Positions 1-34,293 of a DNA stretch of 34,506 bases are shown here, in pieces (positions within the stretch are counted from its first letter, which is position 1; each line of letters begins with the position of its first letter). Source of the stretch: Dentipellis sp. KUC8613 (taxonomy: Eukaryota; Basidiomycota; Agaricomycetes; Russulales; Hericiaceae). The notes beneath the pieces are model-generated. The model was not told where the DNA came from. It did not search any database and was given only the letters and a program-made list of their open reading frames with translations. The stretch lies in the NCBI GenBank assembly GCA_002286715.1, contig NSJX01000112.1:1-34506 (forward strand). Direction: 5' to 3'. Made by a program: the position numbers and the translations under genes.

Positions 1-519
1 GGTGCGGGGCGTCGGATGGTTTCACAAGGCACCACTTACAGGCTCGAGAGCCCTAAGCTTTTGCCGAGTCCAGCCTTTCCAGACAGCACATCAAGGGTAT
101 CTCGGTCGCGGAGCACCTCTGCAAGATAGTGGCGCCCAAACGAACACTTGCGGAGCACTTTATGTCTTTCCACCAGCTCCTCAGCGCCGTTCGTCAAGAC
201 AAAGATTATCTACGCACCCGACTGATACCCGTCCCCAGCCAGCTCCGATGCCCGTCCCCAGCCAGCTTCGGTGCCCCGTCAAAGTCAAAATGTTTGGTCC
301 ATAGCAACAAAGGGCATTTGAGGAGCATATGAGGGGTTAGCGCGGGATGTCGGATGCTTTCACAAGGCACCACCTATGGGCTCGAGAGCCCTAAGCTTTT
401 GCCGAGCCCAGCCTTTCCGACGTAGAGTACACCAAGAAGGACGTTGACACTCAACGTGGCGACACGCCCAAGCGCACTGACGGGTATCACCGTGCGAACC
501 TGAGTCACGTGCCTTTGAG
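1..519 (+). repeat. Left terminal inverted repeat, 519 bp visible
   Basis: Read by eye, bases 1-519 match the reverse complement of 33775-34293 without a difference. Identity stops sharply after base 519. Inside it a motif of about 60 bp beginning TTTCACAAGGCACCAC and ending CCCAGCCTTTCC or TCCAGCCTTTCC occurs twice, near 20-80 and 359-420. A 23-bp direct repeat lies at about 229-275. The motif holds a near-palindrome, GGCTCGAGAGCC, followed by AAGCTT. The copy may extend left of the window. Confidence 0.95.
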
Positions 520-634
520 GTGGTCCGAAAGCGACGAACGACAACAGCGTAATTTAAATGACACAGAAGAAGCACCTCCGCGGCCGACATAGAAAACCGG
601 GGGGTAGTGTTTTCGTGGGGAAGATATTATGCAC

Positions 635-640
635 TTTATT
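635..640 (-). terminator. Polyadenylation signal AATAAA of the left WD40 gene
   Basis: On the minus strand AATAAA begins 14 nt after the TAA stop at 654-656. It is the only canonical hexamer noted close downstream of this gene. Assigned by motif only. Confidence 0.4.
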
Positions 641-653
641 TCCTCGCGTTCTA

Positions 654-2104: not shown

Positions 2105-2327
2105 GCTAGATGATAATCGGCAAGAGTTCCAATAAGCTAGTGACATATAGACTCGCGATTCGTCCACTTGTACTTCTCGTTGATGATGTACGAATGGTAG
2201 ATGCCGACGGATGGGAAAAGGTAGCACGCTGAGGGCGACAATGACGGGAGCCCCATCGCACTCTTAGTGCTTGAGCCACCTGAAACGCTGAGCCACTCAC
2301 TGGTCCAGACTGACGGACACGTGATGG

Positions 2328-2447: not shown

Positions 2448-4664
2448 CTAGGACCTCGACCTGCGGCTGCTTGTACTCGCTTTGCTCGTTGTCGGCTTGC
2501 GCCCGGGTCCACTACTCCTTCCAATCCCACTCGGGCCGGCCATATTGGTTGTTGGCTTATTCCCGTCTTTAGCACTCGTCTGACCTCCCTTTGGATGCGG
2601 CTTCGTACTAGCGGGACCTGCGTTGGATCTACTAGGACCCGGTTGACTTCCACTCGGGCCAGCCTCGCGCTCGCTCGGACGCGCCTTACTCCTATTACCT
2701 GCCTTACTCCCACTCGCTTGGTGGCCTCTCTTTTGCACCAACGCCTGGACATATCTATTGTGATTTCTGTCAGATGAAGCCTTCGTGCATGCGAAAGTCA
2801 ACTCACGACTGCGTTTCCGGGTTATGTTCGAAATGGAAAGATTCGTGCTCTCGAATCATGTACTTGTCCTTTTCGAACGTATTGAGTCTTTGCAACCACG
2901 TGCCTGAATATGCGTCCACCGGAAGATTGGGGACTACGATATCCTTATCTTCGGACGAGTATAGAGCTGTCTCAACGCGGATGCGGACCTGCGTTGGATG
3001 CTTCCTCTGTTTCTTTTCCCGAGCCTGGAGATATTCAGGGTAGAAAGTATCCAGAATGCGGAGCCACGTAGTCACGCGAGGATTTCTCCAGCGCTTCTTG
3101 AGAATGCGAAAGACCGGAACATCAGCAGGATAGCCCCAATTGTGTTCCGCGTCGGACCCCGGGTCTGAATCGTCTTCGCTCATGCCGTTGATCTGCAAAC
3201 GGCGCAGCATCGTCACTCCATGTCGCAGGGAAGGGAAAAACTCCGCCACATCCTTTCGACGATGGAAAAGCTACGTGTAAAGATGAGATAAATGTCTCAC
3301 TGAAAAGGTAGGGGTAAACCCACATTCTTTTGCCTTTCGCGCATGCGAGCCCTCTTCGCATCCTGCATTAACTCGTTTTCCTTCTTCATTTCTTTGAGAA
3401 ATTTCGACCTCAGTGTTTCTGCATGGGTCAAGAAGCCTTCCACAGCCGTCTTCTTCTTCATGTTCGGAAATCTGGCGATAGCGCGGGGAATGTACCAGTC
3501 CGCGAAAACCCTGGCTGCGGACTGGTTCCAATCGCATCTGGGCCCAAGATGCACGCTAATGCGGAAGTTCTCAATCGTACAGCAAGGTGCGTCCGCTTCT
3601 TTCAGATTGAATCCCGCAGCTTCAGCAGGGTCGGCGAGCCCCGTCCGCGGGTTGTCTTCGTCAGGTCCCTTCATCAGCATGTGTACGTGAGTCCGGATAT
3701 CGCCCTGACGAGTCGTTAGATAGTTCTAGAACCAGAATAATTCATGGAAGAGGTATGTACCTGGAATTTACAGACGAGGATCGGTCGGCGCCTCACATCA
3801 CCTGTCATCTCAAAGTCTTGATCGTTTTTGTCGTTGCCGTTGGCTATCCCCTTATACACATCTCGACAGTGGTAACGACGAGTCTTCAGCCCCGGGGCAC
3901 CCTGTCCGTCTGAAGGCACATTTCTGTCCTTTTGGATTCCATCGAGCTTCCTATCGACTTGCTTGTAAAACTTCTGATTCTGTTTCTTCATCTCCGCCAT
4001 GTCCCGTTTCATCTCCCGAATGAGAGAGATGCCTGTGTCCCTCTTGGATGGGAACATTCAACGAGCCGAAATGCTATAGAATATGGATAACGTACCTCGT
4101 CATCGTCCTCCCCATCGGCATACCCGCCCTCCCCACCCTTGTACTCGTCATCCTCACCCTCGTACCCGTCGTCCTCACCCTCGTACCCGTCACCGTCACC
4201 CTCATACGCGTTTCCCTCACCCTCGTATCCTTCGTCCTCACCCTGGTATTCGTTATTGCTCTCGCCGTCGCTTTCATGATGGCTTTGGCTTTCGCGCTCG
4301 TGTTCACCCCCTTCCTCTTGTAAATTGATGTCCAAGGTGAGTCCAATAGGGGTAGGTTCCTCATCCACATCCATGCCATTGAAATCCAGATTGTAACCAG
4401 AAAAGCCTTTCCAGCTTTCGCACGAATCCTGAATTTCAGTCGATTGAGTAAGGCAAACGCTACCAGCGCATACGGAGCCCATACGTCACTATTGTCACCA
4501 CCGTTCAAATTGACAGCCTCTTCATCCGCACGCGCGCCATTGGAAGTCGAATCATTGGGTAGATACTGGGTTGAGATAAGGTGAGCATGAAAATTCGTTC
4601 GCAATCGGGGTGATGGCCATACGTTGCCATTATCGCCATGATCTGAACTATGATATGATGCCAT
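2448..4664 (-). CDS. Agaricomycete hypothetical protein with acidic heptad repeat
   Basis: Six exons join with introns at 4429-4484, 4043-4095, 3705-3760, 3271-3323 and 2767-2806 to give 652 aa from the ATG at 4664. An acidic tandem repeat (about residues 115-170, 7-residue units like GEDDGYE) precedes a Lys-rich helical stretch. The conserved part follows: a segment with FADWYIPRAIARFPN, a basic helix (MRERQKNLFHRRKDVAEFF), then MSEDDSD, VTTWLRILDTFYPEYL and WLQRLNTFEKDKY. The tail is low-complexity Ser/Pro/Lys. I recognise this layout from unnamed proteins found in many copies in mushroom genomes, but no function is known to me. The last intron is only 40 nt. Introns have good GT-AG ends and the frame is unbroken. 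Confidence 0.75.
4126..4262. repeat. 21-bp coding minisatellite (acidic heptad repeat)
   Basis: On the plus strand this reads as repeated CTCACCCTCGTACCCGTC-like units of about 21 nt. On the minus strand it encodes repeated G-(E/D)-(D/G)-(D/E/N)-(G/E/A)-Y-(E/K) heptads in the 652-aa protein. The plus-strand open frames here are shadows. Confidence 0.75.
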
Positions 4665-5007
4665 GAGAACATCAGGGTCTGGCTATAAGATAGTGGCAAG
4701 ATATCATTATTGGCTCGTACTGGGAGAGTCGCATGCCGCAAACCTGCGTCGGCTGGTCCGGGGAGATATCCTCTCTCGCATCCGGGTGTCCAACATCGGC
4801 AGTATTGTTCCGCTGACTTGGCTGGGTAAATTTCGATTTGCGTGGAAAGTTTCGGCCAGCGCGTTTCTTTCCGTTCGTGAGCGGAGTGGTCAATAACTAA
4901 GATCGCCATGAGTCTCACCACAGGACTCTTTGGCCGCTTTGATATCATGGCCTTGCTTCTTCTAGAACGACGCCGATCCTTCTGTAACGAGCGTTAACGC
5001 AGGTTCG
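4665..5007. other. Intergenic, no gene seen
   Basis: This 343-bp gap lies between the start of the acidic-repeat gene and the stop of the next minus-strand gene. Open frames in it (4505-4948 minus, 4663-4896 plus) do not look like a protein and have no matching splice sites. It presumably holds the promoter of the acidic-repeat gene. Confidence 0.5.
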
Positions 5008-8000
5008 TCAAGGGGTCAGATGAGGCACCTGTCGTTCATCCGGCTGACGTGCCACCCGAGTCTGTGATATGCTTTCATTGTCAAGCCCAAGCGGAAAATG
5101 AGAGAACTTTTGCTGCTGGTTGCTTGAAATTTTCTGGAAACATGTGTTAAGAACAATCGTAGACACTCAGAGAACATAATAAAATATCCACCCGGTTTTC
5201 ATCGTCATGATTGTCGAGACGAACGTGCTGATTCGGGCGCCCCGATCGCACAGGAGACTTCGAACCCGCGGGTAACCGGGTCATGTGAGGCGACATTGAA
5301 AGAAGTGAACGAGAGTCTTACCTTGTAGTCGATAGCTTTCCAACCTGGAGGTGGACTTGCTCTGGCCTTGCCCTAGAATCGGATTGTAAAGGACGGGGTC
5401 ACGCGAGAATATCGTGACATACCTTGACTTTCGCACTTAGTCTCTCAGGCTGCAAAACATGATATCCAGCTAAGTTGAGGTCGAGGATGCGATCGATTGT
5501 GCACTCACCTCGCAGTTCATTTCAGTGTCTGAGTCCACTGATGCAAAATATTTGTCCTGTGTGTTTGACGAGGACGGAAGATCCGACGCAACAGGAGCAG
5601 CCGAAGGCGGCACGGGCTGAGACGAAGGAGGCTCGAAGTCGGCTCCTGCCGTCCTATCTGTATGCTGAATATGTGTGGATATTGCCGGTTCTGCTTGAAA
5701 TGACTTAAATACAGGTATAGAGGACTTGAGATAGGTCATGGCTGTCTGCCAAGAGCTCGGGCGATTTACATCTTGACGAGGAGCATCCTGACATCTATAA
5801 GTACACGCGATCATGAATAGCTGCCGCAGAACTCACAGGTTGTTGCATTTGTACTGAGGAGCTGAAGTCGCCGGGAGGCTAATCGGTAGAGTTCTGAACC
5901 TCTGCTGATATAAACCATGAAGAATCAACACGTTACCTCAGTGACCACATTCAATGCATTTGGACCATCGCCATCCACGGGCCTGGAAGTAGAAACGGAA
6001 ACAGAGGGGGCATAGTCTTTTGTGGGAGAACGATAACTTGGGTCTCTGTTCTCGGCAAGGTCGCTCCTCTTCTCAACCAATGCGGATAGGGAATCCATTG
6101 AGGCACTCGAATGTTCGAGATTGAGCTGCGACTGCGACTGTGCCATTACTACAAGATCGTCTTGATCATGATCAGGAGGGTGGTCAGTAGCCAAGCTCTT
6201 ATTCTCCGACTTCTCCTTCGAGACTGACGGCTGGACGCTTGGGTACGTACTCGGTCCGGGGGTTTCATCCGTTCGGGATTCTCCATGCGGCTGCGCGTGA
6301 GCATTCGTCGAAGATGGTTGGAGATTATCCGTCTGTGCTGCCGTCACGGGAAGTCCAATGTCTGCACTAGGTGCGATAGATGCGGGAGACGGAGGCGGCT
6401 TTCCATGCGGCTGCGCGTGAGCATTCGTCGAAGATGGTTGGAGACTATCCGTCTGTGCTGCCGTCACGGGAAGTCCAATGTCTGCACTGGGTGTGATATA
6501 TGCGGGAGACGGAGGCGGCAGACTCCCCGACAATGCATAGTCCTGATCCCTTTGCAACAAAGGAGATGGATTGCGACCAGAGGTTTCTTGGTCTCGCTCG
6601 CCCCCCTGCGCTGAAGGAACATTGACAGAAATAAGGGGAGCGTTGCGCTGACGGAGGCGCTCTGTAAGGGTCGGGCGATCCTTGACGGCAATGTAAGGAT
6701 GGTACGCATGCGACCCTTGGACATCGACGGGCTTCCGATGCGGACCGGTGGCCTGAGGCACGTCTGAGCGGCAGTCCCCAGTGACGTCCGCAGTCCCTGG
6801 CGTGGATGACTCCCATTGCATTGAGGTGGGGGAGACGGCGGGTTCCTCAGCATACGGAGCTGCCGATTGTCCCGCGGGCTCAAGAGGTGGATTCAAGTCG
6901 ATTGATGCTGCATTTGCAGAGGCAGCGCCTACCAGATCTGTAAGAGATCTCATGGGAGGTGATCGCTGCTGGGGCGATACCAGTAGCGAGGCTTCACAGT
7001 CACTGAGCAGAGGAGCGGATCGACTATCGCCGGCGGAATCGGCTGCCGGATCTAGCCCCGAGATCTCTGTCATAGATCCGATCGCGCCAGAGGGTGTTTC
7101 TGCTTCTCCAGACACCGACATGCTACGAGGTGAAAAGGCGGAATCAGACCACGGATTCTCGGTAACGTCCACCGGAGCTTCCTGAGGAATCTCTGAGGCC
7201 GCAGCAATCTCAGGAGAGGGAACAAGGGACTGAACAGCCTCTGCATCCATCGGCGCGTAGGTCTCGTCTTGACGCAAAAAAAGAGGCTCAGCAGCACCGG
7301 GCATCGAATCTGCATGAAAAGAGTCTGCTGCACCCTCAGCGGGGAGAGCGGATATATGTTCGATTTCTGAGGGCACTGATGTATCAAGCCCTGGTGGGAC
7401 AACAGACCTGGGCCCAGTCTCTTCCAACGCGGGCATCGCAAAAGCTGCCAGCATAGTATCTCCTGGGTCTGAAGCGAGGTGTTCAGAAGCCTGCACGACC
7501 TGCATGGACGCCAATGAATCAGGTTGTTTTGGGAGGTCAGACTCGACGGAAGGATTTTCCGGGTTCTCAGTAACGCCCGCCAATCGAGCTTTCCGAGGAA
7601 TCTCCGAGTCCGCCACGACCTCAGAGGCAACGAGGGAAAGAACAGCCTCCGCATCCCTCGGCGCATGAGTTTTGTCCTGACGCGAGAAAAGAGATCGAGG
7701 GTTGTCGACAGCCTCGGCTTCAGAGGGAAGAGCAGAGACATGCGAGGGTTGGTTTGGGAAGTTGCACTCCAAGGAGGGACGTTGAGCAGCCGGAATGAGC
7801 ACGTTTTCTGCCTGTGCACTTGCAGTTTGTTGGGCAGAAACTCGAGAGTGCTGTATCTGTCCGTGAGGTTCATAAGAAAGGCCACAAATGCTAGGTTTGT
7901 ACACTCACTGAATGCACTTCGACTGGTGCTCCCCTTCGTTCCAATACATCCTGACTCAGAACTCCTTTGACCGTAGCAGACGTCCTCGCGGCATCTTCTC

Positions 8001-8838
8001 CGGCCTCACCCTAGACACCAGATTCAGCGATTAGAACGTAGCACAAACCTATAAGATAAGTGCATACCATCTGAACGTCAGTGTCTTCTTCTAGGGTGAA
8101 CTCCATCTGTGAAGGGATTGGAACGGAATGATTAGGCCAATCTAAACCTGAACAGTATGAGTACAGTACCTGTCTCGCCCATATTTGTTCTGCTTCCGCA
8201 TCATTGACGAGATAAAACCCAGAAGCGCCTCTAGTCTCTTCGCGGTGTCCAAGGAAATCCTAATAATTTGCGTACATGAATCTGTATCGCACGGCGTAGT
8301 AGTATGGAACCTACCAAATGATGGGGGTTAATGACAGGTTTCGTGACGTGCGTCATTGGGACTGCGGGCTCCCGATTACACTGGAAATGTGCTCAGAAGC
8401 TTCAAAATTCGAGGTAGACGTGATATCGCACCATGGGCGGTGAAGGCAATTCAGGAGTAGATATATTGCGCGCCGGCCGAAGCTGTTGAGAGACCTGAAG
8501 TCCCGCCTAAGACGGCAGTCAATCATGGGACTTGATGCACATAAAGATGAACGAACTGTGTCTGCAGTCGGTATTCCAAGCTGGCCCACCCTGCTCCTCT
8601 TTGTGACTGTCTCAAGATCGTCGTCGGTGCTATACTCCTCCTCCTCCTCCTCCTCCTCCTCCTCCTTGTCGTTGCTGTTTCCCGAAGATATCGCATCCCG
8701 CGGTCGTTTTTCAGACAACACTCCTGTCACAGCCGACGTATCTTCGGTTTTCTTTGTTTTGACTACCCTAACATAGCGTCGCTCAACGTAAGGATGGTTC
8801 AGAGATCCTTCATGTGAAGGATCGGGTGGATCCTGCAT
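5008..8838 (-). CDS. 1,050-aa low-complexity protein, 13 exons, function unknown
   Basis: Thirteen exons splice in frame to about 1,050 aa from the ATG at 8838. Introns: 8495-8556, 8381-8431, 8260-8314, 8107-8169, 8011-8067, 7857-7908, 5879-5936, 5788-5836, 5450-5508, 5373-5422, 5258-5321 and 5134-5191. The N-terminal exon has a poly-Glu run and a basic patch (VTKRSRVGQ) that could be a nuclear localisation signal. Small exons 3-4 carry the most structured sequence (VTKPVINPHHL, then DFLGHREETRGASGFYLV). Exon 7 (640 aa) is rich in Ser, Pro, Ala and Glu and probably disordered; it holds a repeat of about 140 aa (SRQDKTHAPRDAEAV and LRQDETYAPMDAEAV) and an exact-period 40-aa repeat. I do not recognise the family. 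Several introns flank exons of only 9-22 codons, yet the frame never breaks, which supports a real gene. Confidence 0.7.
6282..6521. repeat. Two tandem 120-bp repeats inside exon 7
   Basis: The unit beginning TCCATGCGGCTGCGCGTG starts at 6282 and again at 6402, with only a few differences. It encodes two 40-aa copies containing PSADIGLPVTAAQTD and QPSSTNAHAQPHG. The high similarity indicates a recent tandem duplication that kept the frame. Confidence 0.9.
8636..8672. repeat. (CCT)n/(GAG)n microsatellite coding poly-Glu
   Basis: A run of CTC triplets on the plus strand encodes about ten consecutive glutamates in the first exon of the 1,050-aa protein on the minus strand. Confidence 0.9.
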
Positions 8839-10097: not shown

Positions 10098-11101
10098 TCA
10101 AGGGTGCATGGTCACATTCATCCACTGCTTGGCCTCCGCGCTGTTTGTAAGCGCGGCAGTCAGACCCAGGAAGCTCCTGTTCAGAGAATGGACGCCAAGC
10201 TGAAGCGCAATCCATGTCCCGTGCTCAAGGATTTCGGCAGCATCTTTCCGCATCTCCTGCATGCCATATTCGAATTCTTCCAGTCGCCAGAGGATGCCAT
10301 CGGACGCTGTATCCAGGGACCTAATGATGCAGCAGAGCGCTCGTAACGCTTTGAAGCGGGCGCTTGCCACTTGACGCTCACGCCACAGAGACAAAGGACT
10401 CAATAAGATGGTCTTATGGCCTGCGACTAGGTCCCGGAATTCGCGGAGGGATAGGTCTCGAGCGTTGTCAATGTTGGCCCTAAGACGCATGAGGTATTGT
10501 TGAATTGCCCCAGTCCAGTACAAGATGTCGTCCACTCTGTCGACGACGCTTTCGACGGAAGAGCGATGGGAGTCTTGCAGCCTCGCGTTTGCCTCCAGAT
10601 GAGGCACTCTGTTCTGCGGCCACGGGAATTGGGTAGCAACAGAATGGTTCAGGCTAGAATAGTCCTCATTAGACGGATTCGAAGCTTTGAGCACAGGTCG
10701 TTACCTTTCGGCACCAACATTGAGGGCGCGTACGAACGCGTGCAGATCGTACCCCAGATGCAAAATACCTCCTGGTAGGGCCTCAAGCTTGTTCGCGATC
10801 ATCTCGGCGCGGACGAAAGGACTGGTGCGCGCTTGCGCGGAAATGTTACTGACGGCGACCGCATAGGCGATCCCACGAGGATGGATGCGAGCGCGGTCAC
10901 AAGCAACGAAATTGAAGGCCTATCGGCAATGATCATCACTTTCAGCATGCTGTCAGACGCACAAAGGCCCAGGGAAACACTTACGGAAATTGTCTCCGTC
11001 GTCCGGGCAATTACAATCGACGTGACGCAGTAGGATATGATATAAAGCAGAAGAAACACCCGCAAGGTAACGGATAGCAAGCTCGTTCGCTGAGGAGGCA
11101 T
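10098..11101 (-). CDS. Helical protein with N-terminal membrane anchor, unknown function
   Basis: Three exons (introns 10920-10984 and 10654-10704) give 295 aa from the ATG at 11101. Residues about 8-31 are strongly hydrophobic (VTLRVFLLLYIISYCVTSIV), which fits a signal anchor or signal peptide. The rest is predicted mostly helical with regular leucines and charges (VVDRVDDILYWTGAIQQYL, LRALCCIIRSLDTASDGILW, EFEYGMQEMRKDAAEIL), like a coiled-coil bundle. I recognise no family. The next gene starts 275 bp away on the same strand. A splice into a frame beyond the stop at 10098 is possible but not needed. Confidence 0.65.
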
Positions 11102-12570: not shown

Positions 12571-13571
12571 AGTAGAAATGTAGTGCGGTGGAGAATTGAG
12601 AGCGAAGAGGCGAAGCAATGTTCGTAACGTCTTCAGCGGGGAATGGCTTTAAATAAAGGCTACTCGAGCATACACGTGTAGTCTGAAGACACCACCACCA
12701 TTGATGCCAAAGGCTCCATCCAAAAGACAACATAGATTGAAGCGACACGAATGGCCATAGAGCTGAAGGAGTTCCGTTCAATGTAAAAGAACGAGGAGAA
12801 CAAATGGCCTAACAATAAGATCTTCTCGCATTTGATTCCTTTTGACCTTTCGTTCGACAAGGCCTCAGGCACCATTTGAGCGCGACGCAAAAGAGGCATG
12901 AACAGCTCCATTCAATGATCGAGATCGGCCCTCAAGAGCGAGGAGGAGGAGGAGGATAAGTAAAGGAAAATAGAGGACTCCAATTGCGCGCACGGGACGC
13001 TAGAGAGCTCGCGTGCACGTCACGTGACTCTATGTGCGCAGCACACGCCCGACGCGTTGCAGCAAAGCTGCCGAACCGCGAGCTACCTGCGCAGCAGGGA
13101 TGTCCGGAAAACGCAGCCCTACCGGTGAGGTATTGGGAAAAGAGACACCACCAGCGCGCAAGTGCTACTTGTTTGCAGAGCAAAGGGAGGAGGGAAGGAG
13201 AAAAAGGGAATCGCCTGCGTGCGGGAACACGTGGGGGAAGCAAGGAGCGTGGAGATCCCTCTGACTCATTGTGACCCCATATGCCTGAGGTCCGCGGACC
13301 AGCGGTCCTGCGGACTTGACACCGCGACCCCAACGAGCTGTTGCTACACGGCTGACGCTCCTGTGGAGCTAGCTTTTGGTTCACGACGCTTGAGGAAAGC
13401 TGAGGAAAACATTGTGGGGTTGTCCGTCGCCCTGCGAGATCCTCTCTGCATTGACCGTGATGACGGAGCCGACACAGACAGGAAATCTGAATTCTACCGT
13501 GAAAAATAGAGTACCGAAGTGGCAGGCAAGGCCCATTACCGCACTCGCTCAGCACCCATGTACTCATCAAA
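12571..13571. other. Intergenic, 1.0 kb
   Basis: The stretch lies between the JmjC stop and the start of the next minus-strand gene. It has a GAG-rich tract at about 12939-12957 and a 12-bp palindrome GGTCCGCGGACC near 13289-13300 followed by AGCGGTCCTGCGGAC. A 212-codon open frame on the minus strand (12932-13570) looks random in composition and was not called. The promoter of the 11377-12570 gene should be here. Confidence 0.5.
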
Positions 13572-16159
13572 CTACATCGCGATATTTAAGTACGGCTGTA
13601 GTAAATCGTTGAACGCAGCACCGATAGCGCTCGTATTATTCTTGAGCTGCAAGAGAGATTTCCTATCCAAGGACGCAAGAGGATTTTCGGGATGAGCGGC
13701 ACTCTGTCTGAAATGAATTGAGTCCGGAGGAATGATCATGTATAATATGAGTACCTACAAATGATCGACCAACGCGAAAGGACTCGTGAATCGTTTCTCG
13801 CATTGTGTTGTGGGGCAGAAAAACGGAAACCGGTCGGTGTTTGGATTTACCTGCTTCCTGAGACCTTTCCTGTGAAGTCGGTTGCGTTCCTTCTGCCTTG
13901 CAGCGCCTCTCGAAACTGACCGAATGGGCCCTACTCTAGACTTGCCAGAGTCAAACGCCAGGGTCTGCGGGTCAGATACCTTCGCAGCATCACGAGGTGA
14001 GATGCTGATGTCCTGACTCGCGTCTAAGGAAGGGGCAATGTCTCCGAGAGTGTCGTCGCGTGAGTACTGCGACTCCCGGTCATAGTTGGCAGATGGCGTT
14101 GGCTTGCACTGAACGGATCCGAGGGAGAGCCAGGCATACCAAATGGTAGTATAAAATTGCAAGACATCGTCACCTTCTCGTGTAAGCAATCTCTGGTCGC
14201 GCAATTGCTGCCGTACTGAGAAAGTGTCTTCCAGATTGTCAACTGATAGAAAATCACTGGCGATCTTGATGGAGTCGGTGATATTCGAGACCTATGTGCA
14301 CATCAATCAGACACAACAGAATGTGAGAGACCTTCGTTACCAACCTGGTGAAGACAACCGGCTGGGATGAAGACAGCTTCCCCGACTCGCTGAATAATGG
14401 TCCATGGTTTTACATTACATTCTCTCTCAAGGCGATCAAGAATATCGGCCGTCAGATAGACCGCATGCGCTAGTACTGGTCCATCATCAGGAGATGCCAG
14501 GCCGCTATCTCGGAGAAATGAACTGATAATGTCGTTGTCTTCTCGGCGAAAGATATGCCACAAAGCGCCACCCTCTTTCTCGTCTTGCGTAGGCGCCGAC
14601 CAAACCATCAGGTTGACCGCATCAGTCATATCAAGGTGGGCGAAAGTGGATCCGCCATGTTTGCCCCCGAAGACAGTGGCGAACGCGTTGTACATCTTGG
14701 GTCCTGTTCAGAGATTCAGGTATGCTATACTCATAATAAGAAGGCGACTAACCTAAGTCCGGAAAGATCCCATTCAAAGGAAAATGTGCAGCCACATTAT
14801 ATATACCGTTTCGATGTGTAAAGTCGGGGAACGGGACGGCATCTCTGAATGCATCGTACAGATCAGGAAACTCTGCCTCGAAATTGGCTTGAGGTGGCCA
14901 ATCCTTCCCGGTGTATAATAAATACTTCAAGATAAATCAGGAGAATAAAGATGGTATACCTTTAATTTCCATCCGTAGAGTTGCTCGCTGTTCCGACCAA
15001 ATTCGGAAAATAGTTCTTGCACAGTCATTTGCTTCTCCGTTCCTTCAATGCTATGTACTATGTTCACCTTTTGGGTTTTGCGAGGGCCATTGACGAAGTA
15101 CTCGGGGCCCCATGCGCCTTGTAGTTGCGTTTCGACGCCCTCGACCACGATCGGAATGCCATGCTGGAGACTACCTCGGAACATATCATGGAACTGAGCA
15201 TACTGAGGCCCTCGAATTCTAAGAATCTCGTTGGTTTCGGCAATGCTACTAGAGAGATTTCTGAGTGAAGAATGTATCTGAGCCGGTCGGACAATATGAA
15301 CGTGATCATTGCGCACCTATTCGCCCTATCTTCTACCAACTTCGACATCTCGGATATTATCTGCCTCAACTCTTCGGAAGGATGACGATATATGGGCCGG
15401 AAGTCCTCCTTGAAATGTGGTCCGTCTCGATCGTATGAGCAGTCGGAAGCAACAGAATCCTAGATCATACAAGCATCAGAAGCCCGTAGCTTAAAGCCGA
15501 AAAGATCTTGCTTACTCCGACCATATCAGACAAGCAAGACTGACAAAACTCACGGCCACATATAGTACACTGAGATGTCGATGAAAACAATTCGGTGGCG
15601 CAATTATCTACGACGAAGGATAATTACCTCTCCCGTCTTCCTGATAGGCTGAACATACCACATGTTACTCGGAGGCTCACTTCGCGTTGGCGGTATACAG
15701 CACCCGGTTGTAGACCGTGCAAAAGCTCGGCTCGAAGTATTGGAAGAAGGATTCGAGCACACGCGACCTAATGAAGAACGATTGTATGAGATTCTACGTA
15801 GAGCCAAGAATGACTGACCTTTTTATTTTCAAGTACGTCCGAGGTATGCCAGGTTCGATATGTCTGGCGGAAATGCGGTTCATCACCGACGCTGGTGGAT
15901 TGGTGATCGAAGGTGACAACCCCAGTGGATTTGTGAATGATACGAACACCTGAGATGAGAAGGATATGATACAGTGTCTTCAATCAATATGCTGGAGATA
16001 ACACGCACCTTGAAAGCGACAAGGCTCTCGGCCAAGCTCCCCGACCGTGTTTGGAGGCCGACACCCAACACATCGAGACTTGAGGCTCGCCGTTTTGAAC
16101 TCTTTACGGCATCTGCCATCACCGCATGGCAGCTTCTGCCTGATTACTCCCGTGTTCAT
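13572..16159 (-). CDS. JmjC histone demethylase, KDM3/JHDM2-like, with three zinc-binding motifs
   Basis: Ten exons join in frame (introns 15950-16008, 15768-15818, 15608-15658, 15460-15515, 15261-15316, 14904-14959, 14704-14752, 14292-14344, 13708-13758) to 701 aa. The JmjC core matches KDM3-type H3K9 demethylases: HGIPIVVEGVETQLQGAWGPEYF, then WKLKDWPP, FAHLDMTDAVNLMVW, ALWHIF, WTIIQRVGEAVFIPAG and CLHQVSN...IKIASDF. The iron ligands H382, D384 and H478 are present. Cys pairs occur at C12/C17/C30/C33, then a C-x2-C...C-x2-C-x4-C-x2-C array (C130-C155), resembling the Cys-rich finger before JmjC in KDM3 proteins. A C-terminal C2H2 finger (C638, C643, H656, H662) may bind DNA. Members use Fe(II) and 2-oxoglutarate to demethylate histone lysine; the substrate here is inferred. 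The first ATG is the least certain part. Confidence 0.85.
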
Positions 16160-19047: not shown

Positions 19048-19088
19048 ATTAAAGTAGCACCAAATTGAGAGGAGGCTTACATCATTGA

Positions 19089-21347: not shown

Positions 21348-21401
21348 ATTGTAGTGGATACGGTAGGCTAACATATCGCTGGCGAGCGTCTCCTTCAGAT
21401 A

Positions 21402-21550: not shown

Positions 21551-22487
21551 TAGGAGAGTACCTGGAGTCAACGCTTGAACGCGGTTGGTCATGAGAGAAG
21601 ATCATGTGCGGACCTGATTGAACCGCCGTCCATGCCTTGTCAAAGACAATCTGCATGTGTTGAAACAACATCAGGCGTGGCCTGACGAGTAAGCGAGCGA
21701 GCGGTTGAAGAGACGGGCTGGGCAAAAGGTCTGAATCCAGCTCGGGAGCCTCATGACGGGACAGGTGGCTGATGGTAAACCGGCCAATGCCGCGACACGT
21801 GGCCTGCAATGGGCTGTGGTGAATTGAAGCTCCTCCTCCTCCTCCTCCGGCAAGCAGACGGTGGCTACTCAATTGCAGAGTTCCGTCTTCGCAATCTCCA
21901 TTGCGACTAGAGCCTTCCGCGAGGGTAGTGTTATCACGTACGTGTCTTGAAGTCTATCTAACATCGCTCATAACTCATCATGCTATATCGGGATAGTATT
22001 CCATAGACCTTTCGCAGCATATTACGCAAGTACTTAGATGCTCTCTAGGGAGGAGACATTGTATGTCGGGGACAGCAATCGTTATGTGCTGGAGTACGAG
22101 CTGAAGGTTTTTTATACCCAATTATTCCGTTTGTGGCTCTTAATAGACTGACGTGTCTGTTTCTTTGTTATCGCGAAGAATAATCCCATGAGACGGCGAC
22201 GCTTTTCTGTCAGATGCCCCGAAGATCAACCCTCCTTCCGATGTGGTTCAGCTCCACATGAAGAACGGTGATTAGGACTTGGTAACTGATCTTGGCTCGT
22301 CGTGATACTGATAGCGCTCACTCAGAAAGAGAAAGTGCCTTCCTTTCTCTCTGGCCCAATTACTCGATGTACTCCTCGCTGCCATCAAATCACCGGTCAC
22401 AATCCCAACAGAGGGTTTAGAGCAAGCCGGTTTGGATGTGCCGATCTCGAGGCAACCGTTTAATGGTATGTTCATCCTCAGAACGTG
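21551..22487. other. Intergenic, 0.94 kb
   Basis: There is a (CTC)n run at about 21830-21849. A 115-codon minus frame (21525-21872) overlaps it and the repeat copy, has poly-Gly from the microsatellite and was not called. Otherwise nothing is recognised; the right end is the likely promoter of the gene at 22488. Confidence 0.5.
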
Positions 22488-22955
22488 ATGTCTCACCGGC
22501 GCGACGTATGTAAACACTCTGCTTCAGACTATAGCGTTCCGAATATCGTTGTCGACATCAAGCCAGTGAGCTCATCTGTCCAAGAGACGAAGAATGCCGA
22601 AAGCAGCACTGCCATGCCTCAACGCCTTGTCCGCCGAACACGTCGATTTCCTGCAGGCACTGGCGAAGGCAGTACAAGTTGGTATTGTACTGAGGGAAAT
22701 GCTAACATTCCTGTCCCACCGGATGGGCTGAGATTTGTCGAAGTTGCTGACATATACGTCCACCGCAATGTGGAAACCGGTCGTTCGCAATTATGGTGCT
22801 TCAACAAAGAACAGTGTTGGCAGCCGACGTACGTAGGAGGCGAGCACCCTCTTCTAGTTGGACGTAGGCTACAGCTGAGGGATAATGGAGAGCCAAGCTG
22901 GGTCAAACCACGCTCATTCTCGACCATGAAGTCTCGGTCACGTTATTCACAGTAA
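22488..22955 (+). CDS. Unknown protein with the short Trp-rich domain (copy 2)
   Basis: A single open frame from ATG 22488 encodes 155 aa. Residues about 80-143 align with the C-terminal domain of the gene at 11377: VEVADIYVHRN against VEVGDLFIHRA, QLWCFNKEQCW against QVWLWNKAEEW, EHPLLVGRRLQL against AHPLLLKHRLRV, and GEPSWV against GTPSWV. The Ser-rich N terminus of copy 1 is largely missing. A splice from TATTCACA with a 50-nt intron could add about 30 more residues ending near 23097. It is on the opposite strand to copy 1. Confidence 0.6.
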   Translation: MSHRRDVCKHSASDYSVPNIVVDIKPVSSSVQETKNAESSTAMPQRLVRRTRRFPAGTGEGSTSWYCTEGNANIPVPPDGLRFVEVADIYVHRNVETGRSQLWCFNKEQCWQPTYVGGEHPLLVGRRLQLRDNGEPSWVKPRSFSTMKSRSRYSQ

Positions 22956-23365: not shown

Positions 23366-24165
23366 TCAGTCCTCAATATCGAAGATTCGAGCCACAACCC
23401 TTCGCAGATAAAGAGGCGTAAACGGAATTCTCTCTCGTGCTCCCATCCTGCAGATCTCTTCCCTAGCCCTCACTATCTTCTCCAATGCGCACTCGTTGAA
23501 GCCGAAATATCCCACCTCCGAGCCGCTGAGGTGCCGAGGCCTCTGCACAAGACGTTGGAGATTATGCCTCGAGGACGAGGGATCGTAATTCCACTGTGCA
23601 CATCGCCGTGCGTCGTTTTCAATCCATACAAGACGCGTTTCCACGGCGTTCATTCGCGGAACCAAGTCGTCGTATCCCACGAGGAGATAGTCAGCAATGC
23701 GCCGAAGGGCAGCACTGCGTTCGGGTGTGAAGTACACGTTGGATCCAAAAAGGTCCCTGGTCAATCAAGTCAGCCGAGACCAAAGAGACAAGTACTGTGT
23801 ATACTCACGGGTTATAGAAACCATCGACGAAAGTCTCAAATTCTAGCACCGATACGCAAATGTGAATCGGATTCTCATCGCAGGTACCTTCTCCTGCCAT
23901 GCCTACGAGGGGAAGAGAGAACATGGACTCAAACACAATTGAGTAGTCTTGGAGGTAGCGACGATGTACTCTGAATAGTTCATTTTCCACCTGTGCCAAG
24001 ACGCTTAGCGCTCAAATCAGCTGAAACCTTAGTGACGTGAGCTACCTGAAAGACGACAGCTTCCGGTCCCGCGAAGTAGCGTTCGTTGCGGATGCACGAC
24101 ATCTGCTGATAGTGAGTGAGGTATTGTAGGCGTGAAACAGTGGTCGAAGGGGAGAATCGTAACAT
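23366..24165 (-). CDS. BTB/POZ-domain protein (copy 1)
   Basis: Three exons (introns 23991-24045 and 23757-23808) give 230 aa from the ATG at 24165. The BTB core is clear: YFAGPEAVVFQVENELFRVH, RRYLQDYSIVFESMF, then TCDENPIHICVSVLEFETFV and FYNP. The C-terminal part (RRIADYLLVGYDDLV and Cys/Trp-containing helices) matches fungal BTB proteins of this type. BTB domains mediate dimerisation or Cullin-3 binding; the role here is unknown. It is head-to-head with its paralogue at 24787. Confidence 0.8.
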
Positions 24166-24786: not shown

Positions 24787-25594
24787 ATGGACCGCACGCC
24801 TTCCCGTAGTAGCAGGCATTATTATGTAGGGGTGGGAACTATCGTTCTCAAGGTAACGTCCTTTTCCACTGCTCTGAACTGGGCCTAGTGATGACAGTGT
24901 ATGCATTCCACGACAGGTCGACGACAAATTCATCAGAGTACACCGTTACTTCCTAGAAGAATATTCGACCTTTTTCCGAGATCTGTTATCGCACTCCCCC
25001 GAAGGCGAAGGCCAAGCAGGGACCTGTGACGAGAACCCGGTTGTCATCAACGAATTTCGCGTATCGTCACTCTCGTTTGAGTTACTCATGGATGTGTTTT
25101 ATGAACCGTACGTAGAATGCTTGCCTATTACATCCTTGGCTTATGCTTATTTGTTGCTCAGTCAAAATATCCATTCTTTTTGTTCCCTTAACATCGCGAT
25201 TCTTTTCGATGCCGCTCGCGCCTTCGACATATACCTCGACCATATTCGTAAGAACATCTGGTCCGCCGAATTGCGCCCGTCTGACTCAGAAGAAGACGTC
25301 AAGACTGTTGAGGAAAGGGGCTACCTTTTCTTGCCTAGCTCGTATAGCGAACCCGAGAAAGCATGCCTCAGGGAGATCCGTGCATCTACATGCGGACCTG
25401 TAATGTGCAGGTTGATAGAAAGGAGTGAGTGTCCATCGTGCTGGGAGCTCCGTAGGATGTCGCGGTCATCCGACGTTTTATCTGGGATTCTTCGGGGGCG
25501 CGAGGAGGTCGCTAGAAGGAGGAGGAATGTGTTACCTATATCTCTGCGTGTTCGAAGAATCGTTGCAGAAGCCCTACACGTCGATTCCATATAA
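24787..25594 (+). CDS. BTB/POZ-domain protein (copy 2)
   Basis: Three exons (introns 24853-24916 and 25108-25161) give 229 aa; an in-frame ATG at 24778 would add three residues. The BTB core parallels copy 1: HYYVGVGTIVLKVDDKFIRVH, RYFLEEYSTFFRDLL, TCDENPVVINEFRVSSLSFE and FYEP, with introns at equivalent positions. Compared with copy 1 the C-terminal half is well diverged, with Arg/Cys-rich stretches. Equal length and intron positions indicate an inverted duplication followed by divergence. Confidence 0.8.
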
Positions 25595-25648
25595 GTGCTG
25601 TTGTAGTTATTGCATTACATCCATATACTTCGTATGCTGTTTCTCTTC

Positions 25649-26053: not shown

Positions 26054-26634
26054 CTCTGCTCATGCAGACCAGAATGTACTATACGACGATCAACTGCGAA
26101 TTTCAACAGACAACAGCAACGCAAACTCCACGTGCAGCTCCACTCTTCAACTCCTACTCTGATTTCTGTAATATAAGCATTTGAGTCTCGCACTAGTAGG
26201 GCTCAGATTTTCATGACCAGGGTTCGACGATATGTGATGGACGTGCGCAACAGTAGATGATGTCATTTGGGTGAGCTTCCGGTTCAGCCATGAGCACCAT
26301 TCCGGGGCAGTTAGTTCAACTCCCAATGGTGCACTATGGTGTTTCTGAGTTTTGTAATAGCCCTCATAATCTATGATGAAAAGGTGCAATAAGCTCGTCA
26401 GGAAATGTACTACCATCTAACGCATTGGTCCCTCTCTTCAATCATGCTGATATTCCTTCGCAGGATTGTTTTCTCTCCCATCCGACGAGCAGACAAAGGC
26501 ATGTGCGCCTGCGCTGACCCTTGAGGCAATCGATCAACACGTGTGCGCCGAGTTGAAAGGCTTGACGCGTGAGCCACTGCTGCATCTTTCATTCGCACCA
26601 TCCACTCAGACCCTTTGGCTACACGCTGAAGACC
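26054..26634. other. Intergenic, likely promoter of WD40 copy 2
   Basis: The 581-bp stretch before the second WD40 gene contains only short frames (26147-26416 minus, 26410-26688 minus) that are shadows or chance. No clear control motif seen. Confidence 0.4.
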
Positions 26635-28493
26635 ATGCTCGACTTTCTCGACGACCCGTACAGCAAGTCTCTTCAGATCGGCCATCAAGATGGTACTAGT
26701 TTGAAGTCCATCTCCTGCCTCGAGTTCTCTCCGTCAGGCGGCTATCTTCTTGTCGGAGGAGACAACGGCGAGCTTCGAGTATTTGAAACCTCGACTGGCG
26801 CAGTCGTGTACAACACTTCTGTAGAAGATGGCATCATGACCGCCATGTGGCATCCCGCGGCCAAGAGGGATTTCTTCTTCGGGACGACCCAAGGCGCCTT
26901 TCTCGTCAAAAACTTTGAGGTCAGTGCGCTCAGGCCCTCTGATCAGTGGGCGTGCAGGCTCTGACATATTTTCATTATCTCCCTGGACACTCAGCAAGAG
27001 GGGCATCCGGTGTTTTCCGGTCTGAGAGGACAGGTGTACGCGTTAGCTTTCAACAAAAATCAAGGATTCCTCGCCGTAGGGATCTCGGAGGAGGTTCATA
27101 TAACCAAGCGCTTGGCGAATCGTATGTCCTTCACTCTTACCAGACAACATTTAGCTCATGCCAGACAACGTCTCTTATTGATTCCAGTGCCCGGATATTC
27201 TACGGCCGTCATCCTCAGCAGCCCACCTGCCGAGAAACTTCATGCACCCGCGTTGGTAGATGATCGCGTCCGCGCGAAGTCGCTTCACTTCACCCGTAAG
27301 GGTCGTCAACTCATTGTATCTTACTTAGCTCATGGCGTTGTGTGAGCACACATTCAAGATATCGATATTCCTACTTTGATCGTCTAATCTACTTTTTTCC
27401 GACAGGTGCTGGGACACGAAGACGGGGGATATTCTTTGGAGAATCGTGCCTAGCCATGAAAGTCAGCTGATGTAAGTTCCTCGGGTGCCAAAGGTGCTCC
27501 TTCATGACTCTCACCTCGCTTGAAGTGGATACACCGCATTGTCGCCGAACTGTCGCTATATGCTACTATCCAATCTCACAGATGGGATGGATCTTTACGA
27601 GGTTGGGAAGTCTCATATCGCTCGTTCTTTCAAGAATGCTGGCGTAGACCAGGACAACAATCTTCCTCTTATGCCTCGCTTTTTGCATGGCGGGAGTTCC
27701 GTCGCCTGTGGAACATCGGATGGACAGGTCAAAGTTTGGAAGACGATGTCAGGGAAGCACGTTGAAGACCTTGATCACGAGCGTGAGCTTCGATCGCTCT
27801 GTTTATAGTATAGTCTCGCAGAGCACTCACCGTCCTCATAGATGATCGCATCCAGTTCATCGCTGTAAGTTGATATATGTACCTTTTCTCCCTAACCAAC
27901 TGATCTACTATCCAGGCGTCGGAGGGTCGCGTAAGCCGGCTCCTTGCGACCGCATGCTTCGATCCCTACGCAGAGGAGACCACAATTACCCTCTGGAAAG
28001 CTCGGAGAGGCCAGCGTCTCGCTCGAACCATGACAAAGTATGTCATTCTTTCCATTGGAAAGATCATTCTTGTAACACAGCTCCTTAGGTTCATGCCTAC
28101 GATCACGGTGAGACCATTGAATGGCACGTGAAACGAGTTTTGCTCATAATCATGCGAAGATCCGTGAGCTTCGCACATCAATTCTCATTGTGGCCTGTGC
28201 ATACTTCATGTATGCTTGCACTCAGCCTCCTCTGTACGACCATGTAAGATAACTCTCATCGTCCCGGTTCAGGTAAACCATATTGACGAACAACAACCTA
28301 GATCTCGCTGTTGATGGGGTCAATCCGCTCGCCAGCCGCTGCTTTCGCGACGGCCGTCCACCTTTGGGTCAGCACCTTCGTCGGGAACGGAGTCAGCACC
28401 CTTCGTCATTGGGCTGTAAGGTTTACTGTTTGGGCATTAGAGATACTTACTTTGCCAGGCACCCCTGGCGACATCGCGGCTTTGAACGAGTGA
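26635..28493 (+). CDS. WD40-repeat protein with probable C-terminal membrane segment (copy 2)
   Basis: Exons with introns at 26920-26994, 27122-27187, 27342-27405, 27472-27525, 27783-27841, 27865-27915 and 28038-28088 splice in frame for about 345 aa. Blades parallel copy 1: CLEFSPSGGYLLVGGDNGEL, DFFFGTTQGAFLV, VYALAFNKNQGFLAVG, VVCWDTKTGDILWRI, YTALSPNCRYMLLSNLTDG, SSVACGTSDGQVKVWK and ITLWKARRGQ. The 3' end is uncertain. Reading on gives a stop at 28129-28131; an intron from 28108 to 28301 (or a multi-exon path) would add a hydrophobic tail (SPAAAFATAVHLWVSTFVG) ending at 28493, like the membrane tail of copy 1. I prefer the longer form because of that parallel. It is transcribed toward the transposase gene and the right end. 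Confidence 0.7.
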
Positions 28494-31900: not shown

Positions 31901-33516
31901 AACCACGGTTACTGGTGCTGAGTTGCAGTCTCTGACCGTCGTCATTCTCCGTGTATTGTGTAAACAAAGCCGATTAAAGGTGACTGGTAACAAGGCTGCT
32001 TTGATAACGAGGCTGATCGATCTGGTATGATCAATAAATCCTCATAAGAGTGTATAACTCATTTCGACATTCTTTTGCAGAAAAACACCTTCCCGTTCGC
32101 CGGGGATTCGACCACAGACATTCCGGTCAGTGAGAAGGGAAAGATCGGCGATGATCCGGCTGGCGACAAAGGCATGGATGAAGGAACTATGAAGAAATCA
32201 GTGCTAGGAAGAAATATTTTGTCCGAAATCAGGAAAGACATGGCGAAGACGCAACTTCCTGCATGGATAAGCCCAGCGCCAAGAAATATGGGTTCAACGC
32301 TCCACGGTAAACTCACCGCCGATCAGTGGAAGGTCGCTTGCACCATACACCTTCCTATCACGCTGATCAGAATCTGGGGTGGAAAGCCTGAGGGTACGCG
32401 GCTCGCCCGAATGCTGGCAAATTTCATCGACCTGGTCGTTGCTGTGGAAGTCGCAACAATGCGTATCATCTCAGAGGAGGACATCGAATTTTACGATACG
32501 CTCATGCTCAGATATCTGGAATCTATGAAAGAACTATACAAGGATGGCAAGGTGCTACCCAATCATCACCTTGCTTTGCATCTTCGCGAATTCCTTCGGT
32601 CCTTCGGTTCGGTTCATGCCTGGAGGGCGTTCGCATTTGAGAGATACAATTATATCCTTCAGCACGAGAATACGAACCAGAAATTTGGTAAGTACCTCCC
32701 TCCCGATATCCCTCGAACGCGAACTGAAACTTCGCGCTCAAGGTGACATGGAAGGCACCTTCATGAGGCACACTTGCCGTAGCGCGAACCTGCGACCGCT
32801 CATGCAAGATCCTGTAGTCAAGAGTACTGTCAATGATCTTGTCGACGCCTATGACGCTATGGCCGCTGAGGACAGGCGGGGGACTCGTGTTCAGGACGCA
32901 ACTGCTCGCAATGACGGGGGCTGGGCTGTCACCAACCCTCCACCTAATTCAGACCTCGTGCAGATGGAGAAAGAGGTATACAAAGCATACGGGAACGCTA
33001 TTCAAACTATCTATCCAGGTAAGTATGTTCCTGAAGGCTACTCGAAGAAGACCCCCCAACAGGAGTACCTGCCGCGAGCTGTTATATCATGCCCCAAGAT
33101 CTTCATCGCAGGCGTCACATACAAGCCACACAAACTGTCGGCCAAGGATAGTAACATCATAACTCGCACAGGGCAAGCCGGTCGCCTCGAACACATTTAC
33201 AGGCAATCTAACGGGCCTCTGGCATCCGAGGTCCACCTTGTAGTCCGCAATCTATGCGACTTGTCAGCAAGCGATGCTGAATACGACCATTATCGCAAGT
33301 TTCCCAGAGGGACCGGAAAACTGTATTACGACCAATACGTGCCAAAGGTCACAGTGCTCCAACCCAAAGATATTACATGCCACTTCGCGAAGACACCCAT
33401 GGATGTCCCTGATATCAAGCAGCCATGTGTGCACGTCTTGCCTTTGAATATCGTACGTCTCCCTGTTTCTCGGACCGCGTCATCATGATGGCTTATAGAC
33501 ACATCCAAATAGATGA
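28925..33516 (+). CDS. tnp2: Tnp2-type transposase (CACTA/EnSpm superfamily), apparently intact
   Basis: Seven exons (introns 29808-29873, 31361-31410, 31708-31760, 32025-32080, 32688-32742, 33453-33498) give 1,421 aa from ATG 28925. The N terminus has the Cys motif HFCSCDVCR followed by MVSRATLHNHQ, typical of basidiomycete Tnp2 proteins. The transposase core follows: ALAVDGFNPF (D508), YLPENMYLVGVIPGPTKPSG, GIRLSRTARYERGRSVLLAL, FFCTYCWLKL, YDERGVRWSELLRLPYWNPF and VIDTMHNLFLGL (D695). Three SAP-like helix pairs come next (near 756-790, 855-889 and 945-977), which may bind DNA. The C-terminal part has WKVACTIHLPITLIRIWG and VLPNHHLALHLREFLRSFG. The third acidic residue was not assigned. No stop or frameshift was found, so the protein is probably functional. 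If the last intron is retained the stop is at 33486-33488. Confidence 0.9.
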
Positions 33517-33774
33517 CAGATGCTGGAGTGTTGCCTGAGCACGACGAAAGGTTGTGAGGAAAGGGCGAGGGGTACTAATGCTACTCGTCGAAGCTCATGA
33601 AGATCTCCAGATGGCATTTATGTATCGATTATTCTCTTAGAGCTGTCGTCTTACACAGTCTTGGGTCTCTAGGCAGCGACGACGAGTTGGCGTTTGAGAC
33701 CAGGACTTGCGAACTACCGTAGCGCATACATTCGGTGTATTGCGTAAATAACAATGTAATACGCCATACGCAGA

Positions 33775-34293
33775 CTCAAAGGCACGTGACTCAGGTTCGC
33801 ACGGTGATACCCGTCAGTGCGCTTGGGCGTGTCGCCACGTTGAGTGTCAACGTCCTTCTTGGTGTACTCTACGTCGGAAAGGCTGGGCTCGGCAAAAGCT
33901 TAGGGCTCTCGAGCCCATAGGTGGTGCCTTGTGAAAGCATCCGACATCCCGCGCTAACCCCTCATATGCTCCTCAAATGCCCTTTGTTGCTATGGACCAA
34001 ACATTTTGACTTTGACGGGGCACCGAAGCTGGCTGGGGACGGGCATCGGAGCTGGCTGGGGACGGGTATCAGTCGGGTGCGTAGATAATCTTTGTCTTGA
34101 CGAACGGCGCTGAGGAGCTGGTGGAAAGACATAAAGTGCTCCGCAAGTGTTCGTTTGGGCGCCACTATCTTGCAGAGGTGCTCCGCGACCGAGATACCCT
34201 TGATGTGCTGTCTGGAAAGGCTGGACTCGGCAAAAGCTTAGGGCTCTCGAGCCTGTAAGTGGTGCCTTGTGAAACCATCCGACGCCCCGCACC
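33775..34293 (-). repeat. Right terminal inverted repeat, 519 bp
   Basis: This is the exact inverted copy of 1-519, with position n matching 34294 minus n. It starts 258 bp after the stop of the Tnp2 transposase gene. The absence of differences over 519 bp points to recent transposition or to gene conversion between the ends. Small open frames inside it are not considered genes, because both copies carry them and they consist of repeats. Confidence 0.95.

What the first reader, a model, noticed from the sequence alone, without database searches (positions are those of the whole stretch)
1..34293. A 34-kb CACTA-type transposon carrying a dozen spliced genes
Exact 519-bp inverted repeats at both ends plus an intact Tnp2 transposase enclose JmjC, Ulp1, WD40, BTB, LRR-like and unknown genes, all with open spliced frames. 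Cargo-carrying giant elements are known in ascomycetes (Starships, tyrosine recombinase-based). A Tnp2-based basidiomycete counterpart of this size with chromatin-modifying cargo would, to my knowledge, be new.
Basis: partly seen in the sequence, partly recalled or inferred. Interest (0 to 1): 0.9.

Follow-up and report, generated by a model that had tools for sequence, protein, structure and literature searches.

The report
Giant fungal transposon with demethylase-like gene
The window looks like most of a very large "jumping gene" from a mushroom; besides its own cutting enzyme it carries about a dozen other genes, including one resembling a histone demethylase that might counter the host's silencing, and diverged relatives of the package sit elsewhere in the same genome.

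Summary
The window is an entire 34,506-bp contig that begins inside the repeat and runs 213 bp past the right arm, so true ends and any target-site duplication are not visible. Partial copies of the repeat were found only on contigs with the same genes (a capped search). Diverged versions of the gene set occur on C30, C39, C105, C125 and C162. C105, inside a 260-kb scaffold, shows the same layout at about 52 kb: inverted arms of 1,729 bp with 6 mismatches enclose Tnp2 and JmjC genes. Nine other genes compared between C14 and C30/C39 are under purifying selection (dN/dS 0.12-0.40; transposase 0.11), so they look like core element genes. Element-type JmjC proteins form a 100/99-supported lineage apart from the host's KDM3 genes, 11 of 15 with an extra zinc finger. 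Best reading: a family of giant Tnp2/EnSpm-type DNA transposons with a conserved chromatin-directed toolkit. Mobility, CACTA termini, target-site duplication and anti-silencing function are not shown.

The parts
1..519 (+). left inverted arm (truncated by contig start)
   Evidence: 100% inverted match to 33775-34293
33775..34293 (-). right inverted arm
34304..34506 (-). further outward unit of a ~215-bp tandem array, 84% like 6-205; cut by contig end
21395..21466 (+). internal copy of the ~70-bp subterminal repeat
   Evidence: an internal copy of its own repeat is also seen in C105
882..2263 (-). second WD40-like gene (two open stretches 882-1421 and 1805-2263)
   Evidence: WD40 E 2e-10 for 1808-2263, none for 885-1421; both similar to the C105 WD40 region
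2803..8838 (-). large unknown gene(s), uncertain 1704-aa model; the 3297-3725 part recurs on C105, C125 and C152, the 8.2-8.8 kb part on C30
   Evidence: no Pfam hit for the pieces scanned
10098..11101 (-). unknown gene, dN/dS 0.34 vs C30
11377..12648 (-). unknown gene family, found on more contigs (8) than any other non-transposase family searched; dN/dS 0.26
13570..16159 (-). KDM3-like JmjC protein, 701 aa, 10 exons, C-terminal C2H2-like finger; HxD...H conserved (H382, D384, H478)
16528..17623 (-). Ulp1/C48 SUMO-protease-like, 306-aa model (5' exons uncertain)
   Evidence: PF02902 E 2.3e-13; dN/dS 0.15
18190..20229 (-). unknown ('LRR-like') gene region; dN/dS 0.40 vs C30 for 19325-20056
   Evidence: no Pfam
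22464..22955 (+). paralogue of the 11377 family; dN/dS 0.23
23366..24165 (-). BTB gene
   Evidence: PF00651, 21.0 bits against a cutoff of 20.5
24878..25594 (+). BTB gene
   Evidence: PF00651 E 3.8e-6
26566..28243 (+). WD40 gene next to the transposase; dN/dS 0.18 vs C39
28925..33488 (+). Tnp2 (Transposase_21) transposase, 1420 aa, 6 exons; D508, D605, C624/C627, H1133/H1137, E1157 conserved

Best explanation
The contig is most of one member of a family of giant (about 34 to 52 kb or more) DNA transposons in a Russulales mushroom (most likely Dentipellis sp. KUC8613). A Tnp2/EnSpm-type DDE transposase is inferred to cut and paste the whole unit by acting on long inverted arms built of subterminal repeats. 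The other genes are mostly conserved parts of the element. The JmjC-zinc-finger protein is inferred to remove H3K9 methylation from the element, perhaps steered by its finger; the Ulp1 protease (deSUMOylation) and the BTB and WD40 proteins (possible ubiquitin-ligase adaptors) are inferred to act against silencing too. Shown by calls: inverted arms, co-occurrence at several loci, purifying selection, conserved catalytic residues, a separate JmjC lineage. Inferred: mobility, enzyme substrate, targeting, anti-silencing role.
For: Inverted arms in C14 (519 bp, 0 mismatches) and in C105 (1,729 bp, 6 mismatches, about 52 kb end to end), the latter inside a 259,773-bp scaffold. C14 gene order from 8.2 to 22.9 kb recurs on C30 (reversed), and WD40 plus transposase on C39. 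Of 10 Tnp2 loci found in the genome, three (C14, C105, C125) have an element-type JmjC within 30 kb. dN/dS 0.11-0.40 in 10 of 10 genes compared (the BTB value rests on a saturated dS of 3.8; not all C14 genes were compared). CMCT-type transposase residues present. JmjC H/D/H invariant with bird KDM3A (that these bind iron is recalled). JmjC clade 100/99, apart from the host KDM3 genes on C51 and C1. Sparassis crispa (Polyporales) JmjC SCP_1603190 and Tnp2 SCP_1603320 are both listed with a contig of 969,073 bp. A WD40 stretch similar to the C14 one is joined to Tnp2 in gene models of Grifola and Antrodiella.
Against: No TSD or CACTA terminus found in C105; C14 ends are missing. No near-identical second copy and no empty site, so no proof of recent movement. 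Tnp2 stretches on C125 (2), C162 (1) and C1:1515k (1) show in-frame stops, so some members may be dead; I did not trace whether these lie in introns. C162 carries Tnp2, WD40 and other shared genes but no JmjC hit. C81, C87, C93, C139, C152 and C161 each carry one shared family without Tnp2 or element-type JmjC. Four of 15 JmjC-clade rows lack a visible finger, and the finger label needs 5 changes on the tree. CpG observed/expected is about 1.0 also in C162 and in the C1:1515k Tnp2 locus, which have no JmjC, so normal CpG content is no evidence for protection by JmjC. All 6 differences between the C105 arms are CpG transitions, hinting that this element was methylated despite its JmjC.
Confidence: 0.7

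Rival explanations
1. A small (about 12-13 kb) Tnp2 element lies next to, or is nested in, a duplicated host gene cluster; the JmjC half is not moved with it.
For: In C14 the internal repeat at 21395 and the right arm bracket a 12.8-kb Tnp2 block in inverted orientation; repeat pairs about 12.0 kb apart bracket Tnp2 in C39, C105 and C125. C162 has Tnp2 and other shared genes without JmjC.
Against: Outer arms in C14 and C105 enclose both Tnp2 and JmjC; the ~12-kb pairs in C39, C105 and C125 are direct, not inverted; JmjC and Tnp2 have similar dS (1.53, 1.68) and dN/dS (0.12, 0.11); element-type JmjC forms its own clade.
Confidence: 0.17
2. The exact C14 inverted repeat is an assembly fold-back or collapse.
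For: The window is the whole contig, with both ends in repeat; NCBI proteins matching C14 genes are listed on a 45,553-bp contig, so this assembly is incomplete here.
Against: A similar layout is found in C105 with 6 mismatches and flanking sequence on both sides.
Confidence: 0.07
3. An endogenised large DNA virus or Polinton-like element (long inverted repeats, Ulp1-like protease, JmjC).
For: JmjC is the most enriched domain of giant-virus insertions in Amoebidium (PMC11244446, passages read); long terminal inverted repeats.
Against: No polymerase B, integrase or capsid family among the window ORFs and models scanned (ORFs under about 120 aa were not scanned); genes are intron-rich; a Tnp2 with conserved residues is present.
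Confidence: 0.04

Closest known systems
TET/JBP-carrying EnSpm, Plavaka and KDZ transposons of fungi (Kojima 2025, PMC12730594: abstract, passages and section 4.2 read)
   Same: DNA transposons, some of the CMCT group, carrying a dioxygenase thought to counter silencing; C(2)C and H(3-4)H transposase motifs; present in Agaricomycetes
   Different: There the dioxygenase acts on DNA (TET/JBP); here it is a KDM3-like JmjC lineage, with many more genes in the unit. That paper's CMCT ends (5'-CA..TG-3' in most cases, 2-5 bp TSDs) are not shown here
Plavaka giant repeats of Amoebidium (PMC11244446, passages read)
   Same: Up to 50 kb, many genes, usually flanked by a transposase that PMC12730594 places in the CMCT group
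   Different: Tandem clusters of intron-poor genes, many encoding tyrosine recombinases; the JmjC genes reported there lie in endogenised viruses and are KDM4-like
Enlarged 16-20 kb En/Spm with 4-5 ORFs in Chondrus (cited in PMC6431247, one passage read)
   Same: En/Spm element grown by extra ORFs
   Different: Red alga, smaller; no chromatin toolkit described in the passage read
Starships (listings; Tremella cases in PMC13066641, passages read)
   Same: Giant fungal elements with many genes, now also reported in a basidiomycete
   Different: Defined by a tyrosine-recombinase captain; here a DDE-type Tnp2 and long inverted arms

Membership tests
EnSpm/CACTA (Tnp2) DNA transposon | Transposase_21/Tnp2 domain | tested here: met
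   PF02992 E 2.6e-15, 56.7 bits against a cutoff of 28.6; Plavaka model only 13.6 bits, below its cutoff of 26.3
EnSpm/CACTA (Tnp2) DNA transposon | DDE residues with C(2)C and H(3-4)H between second D and last E (motif as given in PMC12730594) | tested here: met
   D508 18/18, D605 17/18, C624 and C627 18/18, H1133 and H1137 18/18, E1157 17/18 rows; the assignment of D508/D605/E1157 as the catalytic residues is my reading of the alignment
[quoted passage not shown]
   C14 ends lie beyond the contig; in C105 arm homology ends at CGCCTTCACTC...GAGTGAAGGCG without a clean TSD
EnSpm/CACTA (Tnp2) DNA transposon | Subterminal repeat arrays (feature recalled) | tested here: met
   About 70-bp units at both ends and inside, on C30 and C39 in pairs about 207-217 bp apart; similar layout in C105
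KDM3-type JmjC histone demethylase | KDM3 similarity and HxD...H triad | tested here: met
   KDM3B chain E 1.6e-42; H382, D384, H478 invariant in 8 of 8 sequences
KDM3-type JmjC histone demethylase | H3K9 demethylase activity | not testable with these tools
   needs an enzyme assay
Starship | Tyrosine-recombinase captain | tested here: inconclusive
   No such family among the window proteins scanned against Pfam, but small ORFs were not scanned and the contig ends are missing
Polinton/Maverick or large DNA virus | Polymerase B, integrase and capsid genes (features recalled) | tested here: inconclusive
   None among the ORFs and models scanned; small ORFs were not scanned

The most novel reading that the evidence does not exclude
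Agaricomycete giant Tnp2 transposons carry a private, old lineage of JmjC-zinc-finger histone demethylases that the element aims at its own subterminal repeats, with a SUMO protease and BTB/WD40 ubiquitin-ligase adaptors: a multi-layer, element-encoded counter-defence against heterochromatin, the histone-level equivalent of transposon-borne TET.
Probability: 0.4. Interest if true: 0.92.

Novelty: new variant of a known kind. Interest (0 to 1): 0.8.

Why it matters
Giant gene-rich transposons in fungi are known mainly as tyrosine-recombinase Starships. A DDE/Tnp2 counterpart in mushroom-forming fungi, with a gene set kept by purifying selection, would widen the known routes by which multi-gene blocks move. 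A transposon-borne KDM3-like lineage would make the question of how eukaryotic DNA transposons escape histone-based silencing directly testable, next to the TET/JBP case at the DNA level.

Full report
What the window is. The window is the complete contig C14, 34,506 bp, of a 34.1-Mb genome in 171 contigs. Its JmjC protein matches DENSPDRAFT_109473 of Dentipellis sp. KUC8613 (Russulales, Hericiaceae) at 100% identity in the best local alignment, 92% of the query part covered, so the organism is most likely that mushroom; the remaining differences to the database models look like splice choices. Three database proteins matching C14 genes are listed on a 45,553-bp contig and one matching C30 on a 31,001-bp contig, so more flanking sequence exists elsewhere than in this assembly.

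The repeats. Bases 1-519 and 33775-34293 are exact inverted repeats. They hold about 70-bp subterminal units, and a 215-bp tandem unit continues beyond the right arm to the contig end. The contig starts inside the repeat, so arm length and unit length are minima. Searching the genome with the 519 bp gave 11 matches: the two arms, the outward unit and one internal copy in C14, and seven short (about 70-bp) matches, three on C30 and four on C39 (only the best candidates are scored, so this is a lower bound). Both of these contigs carry the same gene families as C14. The repeat was thus not found without such genes.

A family of related loci. C30 (17,439 bp, reversed) matches C14 from 8.2 to 22.9 kb in the same gene order; C39 (21,043 bp) matches the WD40 gene and the transposase. 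Protein-level comparison finds Tnp2, WD40, the 3297 family, the 11377 family and JmjC on C105, Tnp2 and JmjC on C125, and Tnp2, WD40, the 11377 family and the LRR-like gene on C162. Counting contigs with a match, C14 included: 11377 family 8, of which 6 also carry Tnp2 or element-type JmjC; 3297 family 4, of which 3; Ulp1 3, of which 2; LRR-like 3 of 3; WD40 4 of 4; BTB 4, of which 2; the 10098 gene 2 of 2. By my own arithmetic, with 10 Tnp2 loci in 34.1 Mb, two of the four element-type JmjC loci other than C14 lying within 30 kb of one is expected by chance about 0.2% of the time; the other two sit on short contigs (C30, C35).

The best-delimited member. The C105 left end (128140-128780) has a near-identical inverted partner at 177487-178127 of the same 259,773-bp scaffold. 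The arms match over 1,575 bp with 5 mismatches in the part first compared and inward to 129020/177247, 1,729 bp with 6 mismatches in all. After bridging a 10-N gap whose sides overlap by 95 bp, the match continues outward at about 85-90% to 127041 and 179113, making a unit of about 52 kb. Tnp2 lies near one arm and JmjC further in, and there is an internal copy of its own subterminal repeat, as in C14; the C105 and C14 repeats do not match each other. No clean target-site duplication was found. C105 from 171,001 to 176,600 was not read, and 157465-158404 is a run of N.

Genes and selection. The JmjC model is 701 aa in 10 exons and the transposase 1420 aa in 6. Pfam finds JmjC, Ulp1/C48, BTB (twice), WD40 (twice) and Transposase_21; nothing above a curated cutoff for the other window ORFs and models scanned (ORFs under about 120 aa not scanned). 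Comparing C14 with C30 or C39 by a home-made Nei-Gojobori count, dN/dS is Tnp2 0.11 (1392 codons), JmjC 0.12 (642), Ulp1 0.15, BTB 0.17 (dS saturated), WD40 0.18, the 22.5-kb gene 0.23, 11377 0.26, the 8.5-kb gene 0.30, 10098 0.34, LRR-like 0.40. Nine of ten had no stop in the aligned subject stretches; Tnp2 had two, which I did not trace. dS is 0.9-1.7 except for BTB, near saturation, so the ratios are rough, but they agree that these genes have been kept, and JmjC, Ulp1 and Tnp2 show similar dS. Some other Tnp2 copies show in-frame stops: C125 two, C162 one, C1:1515k one, so not every member need be active.

The transposase. Across 18 rows D508, D605, C624, C627, H1133, H1137 and E1157 are invariant or nearly so, matching the CMCT signature given in PMC12730594 (passages read). 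In the tree of 38 rows C14 and C39 pair at 100/99, next to Hericium and Artomyces with weak support; C105 and C125 pair at 100/99; C162 lies far away.

The JmjC lineage. The best solved relative is KDM3B (E 1.6e-42), and H382, D384 and H478 are invariant through bird KDM3A (8 of 8 sequences). In a tree of 40 rows, 15 rows including C14, C30, C105, C125 and C35 form one side of a 100/99 branch, while the host KDM3 genes on C51 and C1 fall with canonical mushroom KDM3. Eleven of the 15 have a basic tail with a C2H2-like finger; I labelled this by eye from at most the last 110 residues, the C14 finger from its full model, and the C1 tail was not examined. The finger label needs 5 changes on the tree (shuffled mean 9.8), so loss, truncated models or several origins remain possible. 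In Sparassis crispa the element-type JmjC (SCP_1603190) and a Tnp2 protein (SCP_1603320) are both listed with a contig of 969,073 bp, tags 130 apart. In Grifola and Antrodiella gene models a WD40 stretch similar to the C14 one is joined to Tnp2.

Silencing traces. CpG observed/expected is 1.01 in C14, 1.02 in the C105 part read, 1.02 in C162, 0.98 in the C125 part and 1.00 at the C1:1515k Tnp2 locus, against 0.88 and 0.63 in two Tnp2 fragments (L047, L048). Loci without JmjC thus also have normal CpG, so this does not speak for protection by JmjC. All six differences between the C105 arms are CpG transitions (about 3e-5 if differences fell uniformly over bases, 9e-4 if over C and G bases), a trace expected of methylated cytosine; in a shared C30/C39 repeat it is 3 of 8. 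So at least the C105 element was probably methylated after its arms became identical. This fits an arms race but does not prove that the JmjC protein protects the element.

Mechanism, with steps marked. Shown: inverted arms, conserved transposase residues, repeated co-occurrence, selection, separate JmjC lineage. Inferred from family knowledge (recalled): Tnp2 enzymes cut and paste DNA at terminal repeats; KDM3 enzymes remove H3K9 methylation; Ulp1 proteases remove SUMO, which supports heterochromatin; BTB and some WD40 proteins serve as ubiquitin-ligase adaptors. From these I infer a counter-silencing toolkit. Not shown: movement, target-site duplication, enzyme activity, targeting.

Novelty. 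In the titles and abstract starts listed by searches of the held open-access library (listings capped at 8 to 20 papers, with up to 2,937 papers matching) I saw none describing a JmjC gene on a Tnp2/EnSpm element or a giant Tnp2 element in basidiomycetes; subscription papers, including the original KDZ/TET paper (recalled), were not available. Known relatives in kind are listed under Closest known systems, so I rate this a new variant of a known kind.

Noticed in passing
C39 8746/20740, C105 128621/140609, C125 80010/92100 (loci L012-L014, L049-L050, L053-L054); window 21395/34214: A repeat pair brackets Tnp2 at near-constant spacing (11,994; 11,988; 12,090 bp, direct) in three diverged loci, and at 12.8 kb (inverted) in C14, although the genes between differ.
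   Followed up: partly
C105 127292-129020 vs 177247-178975: All 6 differences between the inverted arms are CpG transitions, suggesting cytosine methylation of this element.
   Followed up: partly
L059:2624-3691 (C162 10624-11691, - strand): A SUN-domain (Sad1_UNC, E 2e-21) gene lies next to Tnp2 in C162; a Pisolithus protein matching Tnp2 (P0183) is also named SUN domain-containing.
   Followed up: no
L051:6154-7803 (C105 154154-155803, + strand): F-box-like gene inside the C105 element (PF12937, E 1.2e-5).
   Followed up: no
window 6282-6519: Near-perfect 120-bp tandem duplication inside the long open frame of the 2803-8838 gene.
   Followed up: no
C1:1515502 and C77:611: A further Tnp2 lineage in the same genome, sister to each other (100/100), with no element-type JmjC hit on those contigs.
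   Followed up: no
L049:2484-2742 (C105 about 130484-130742): A stretch inside the C105 element matches short (about 40-65 bp) dispersed repeats on many other contigs; these are not the arms.
   Followed up: no
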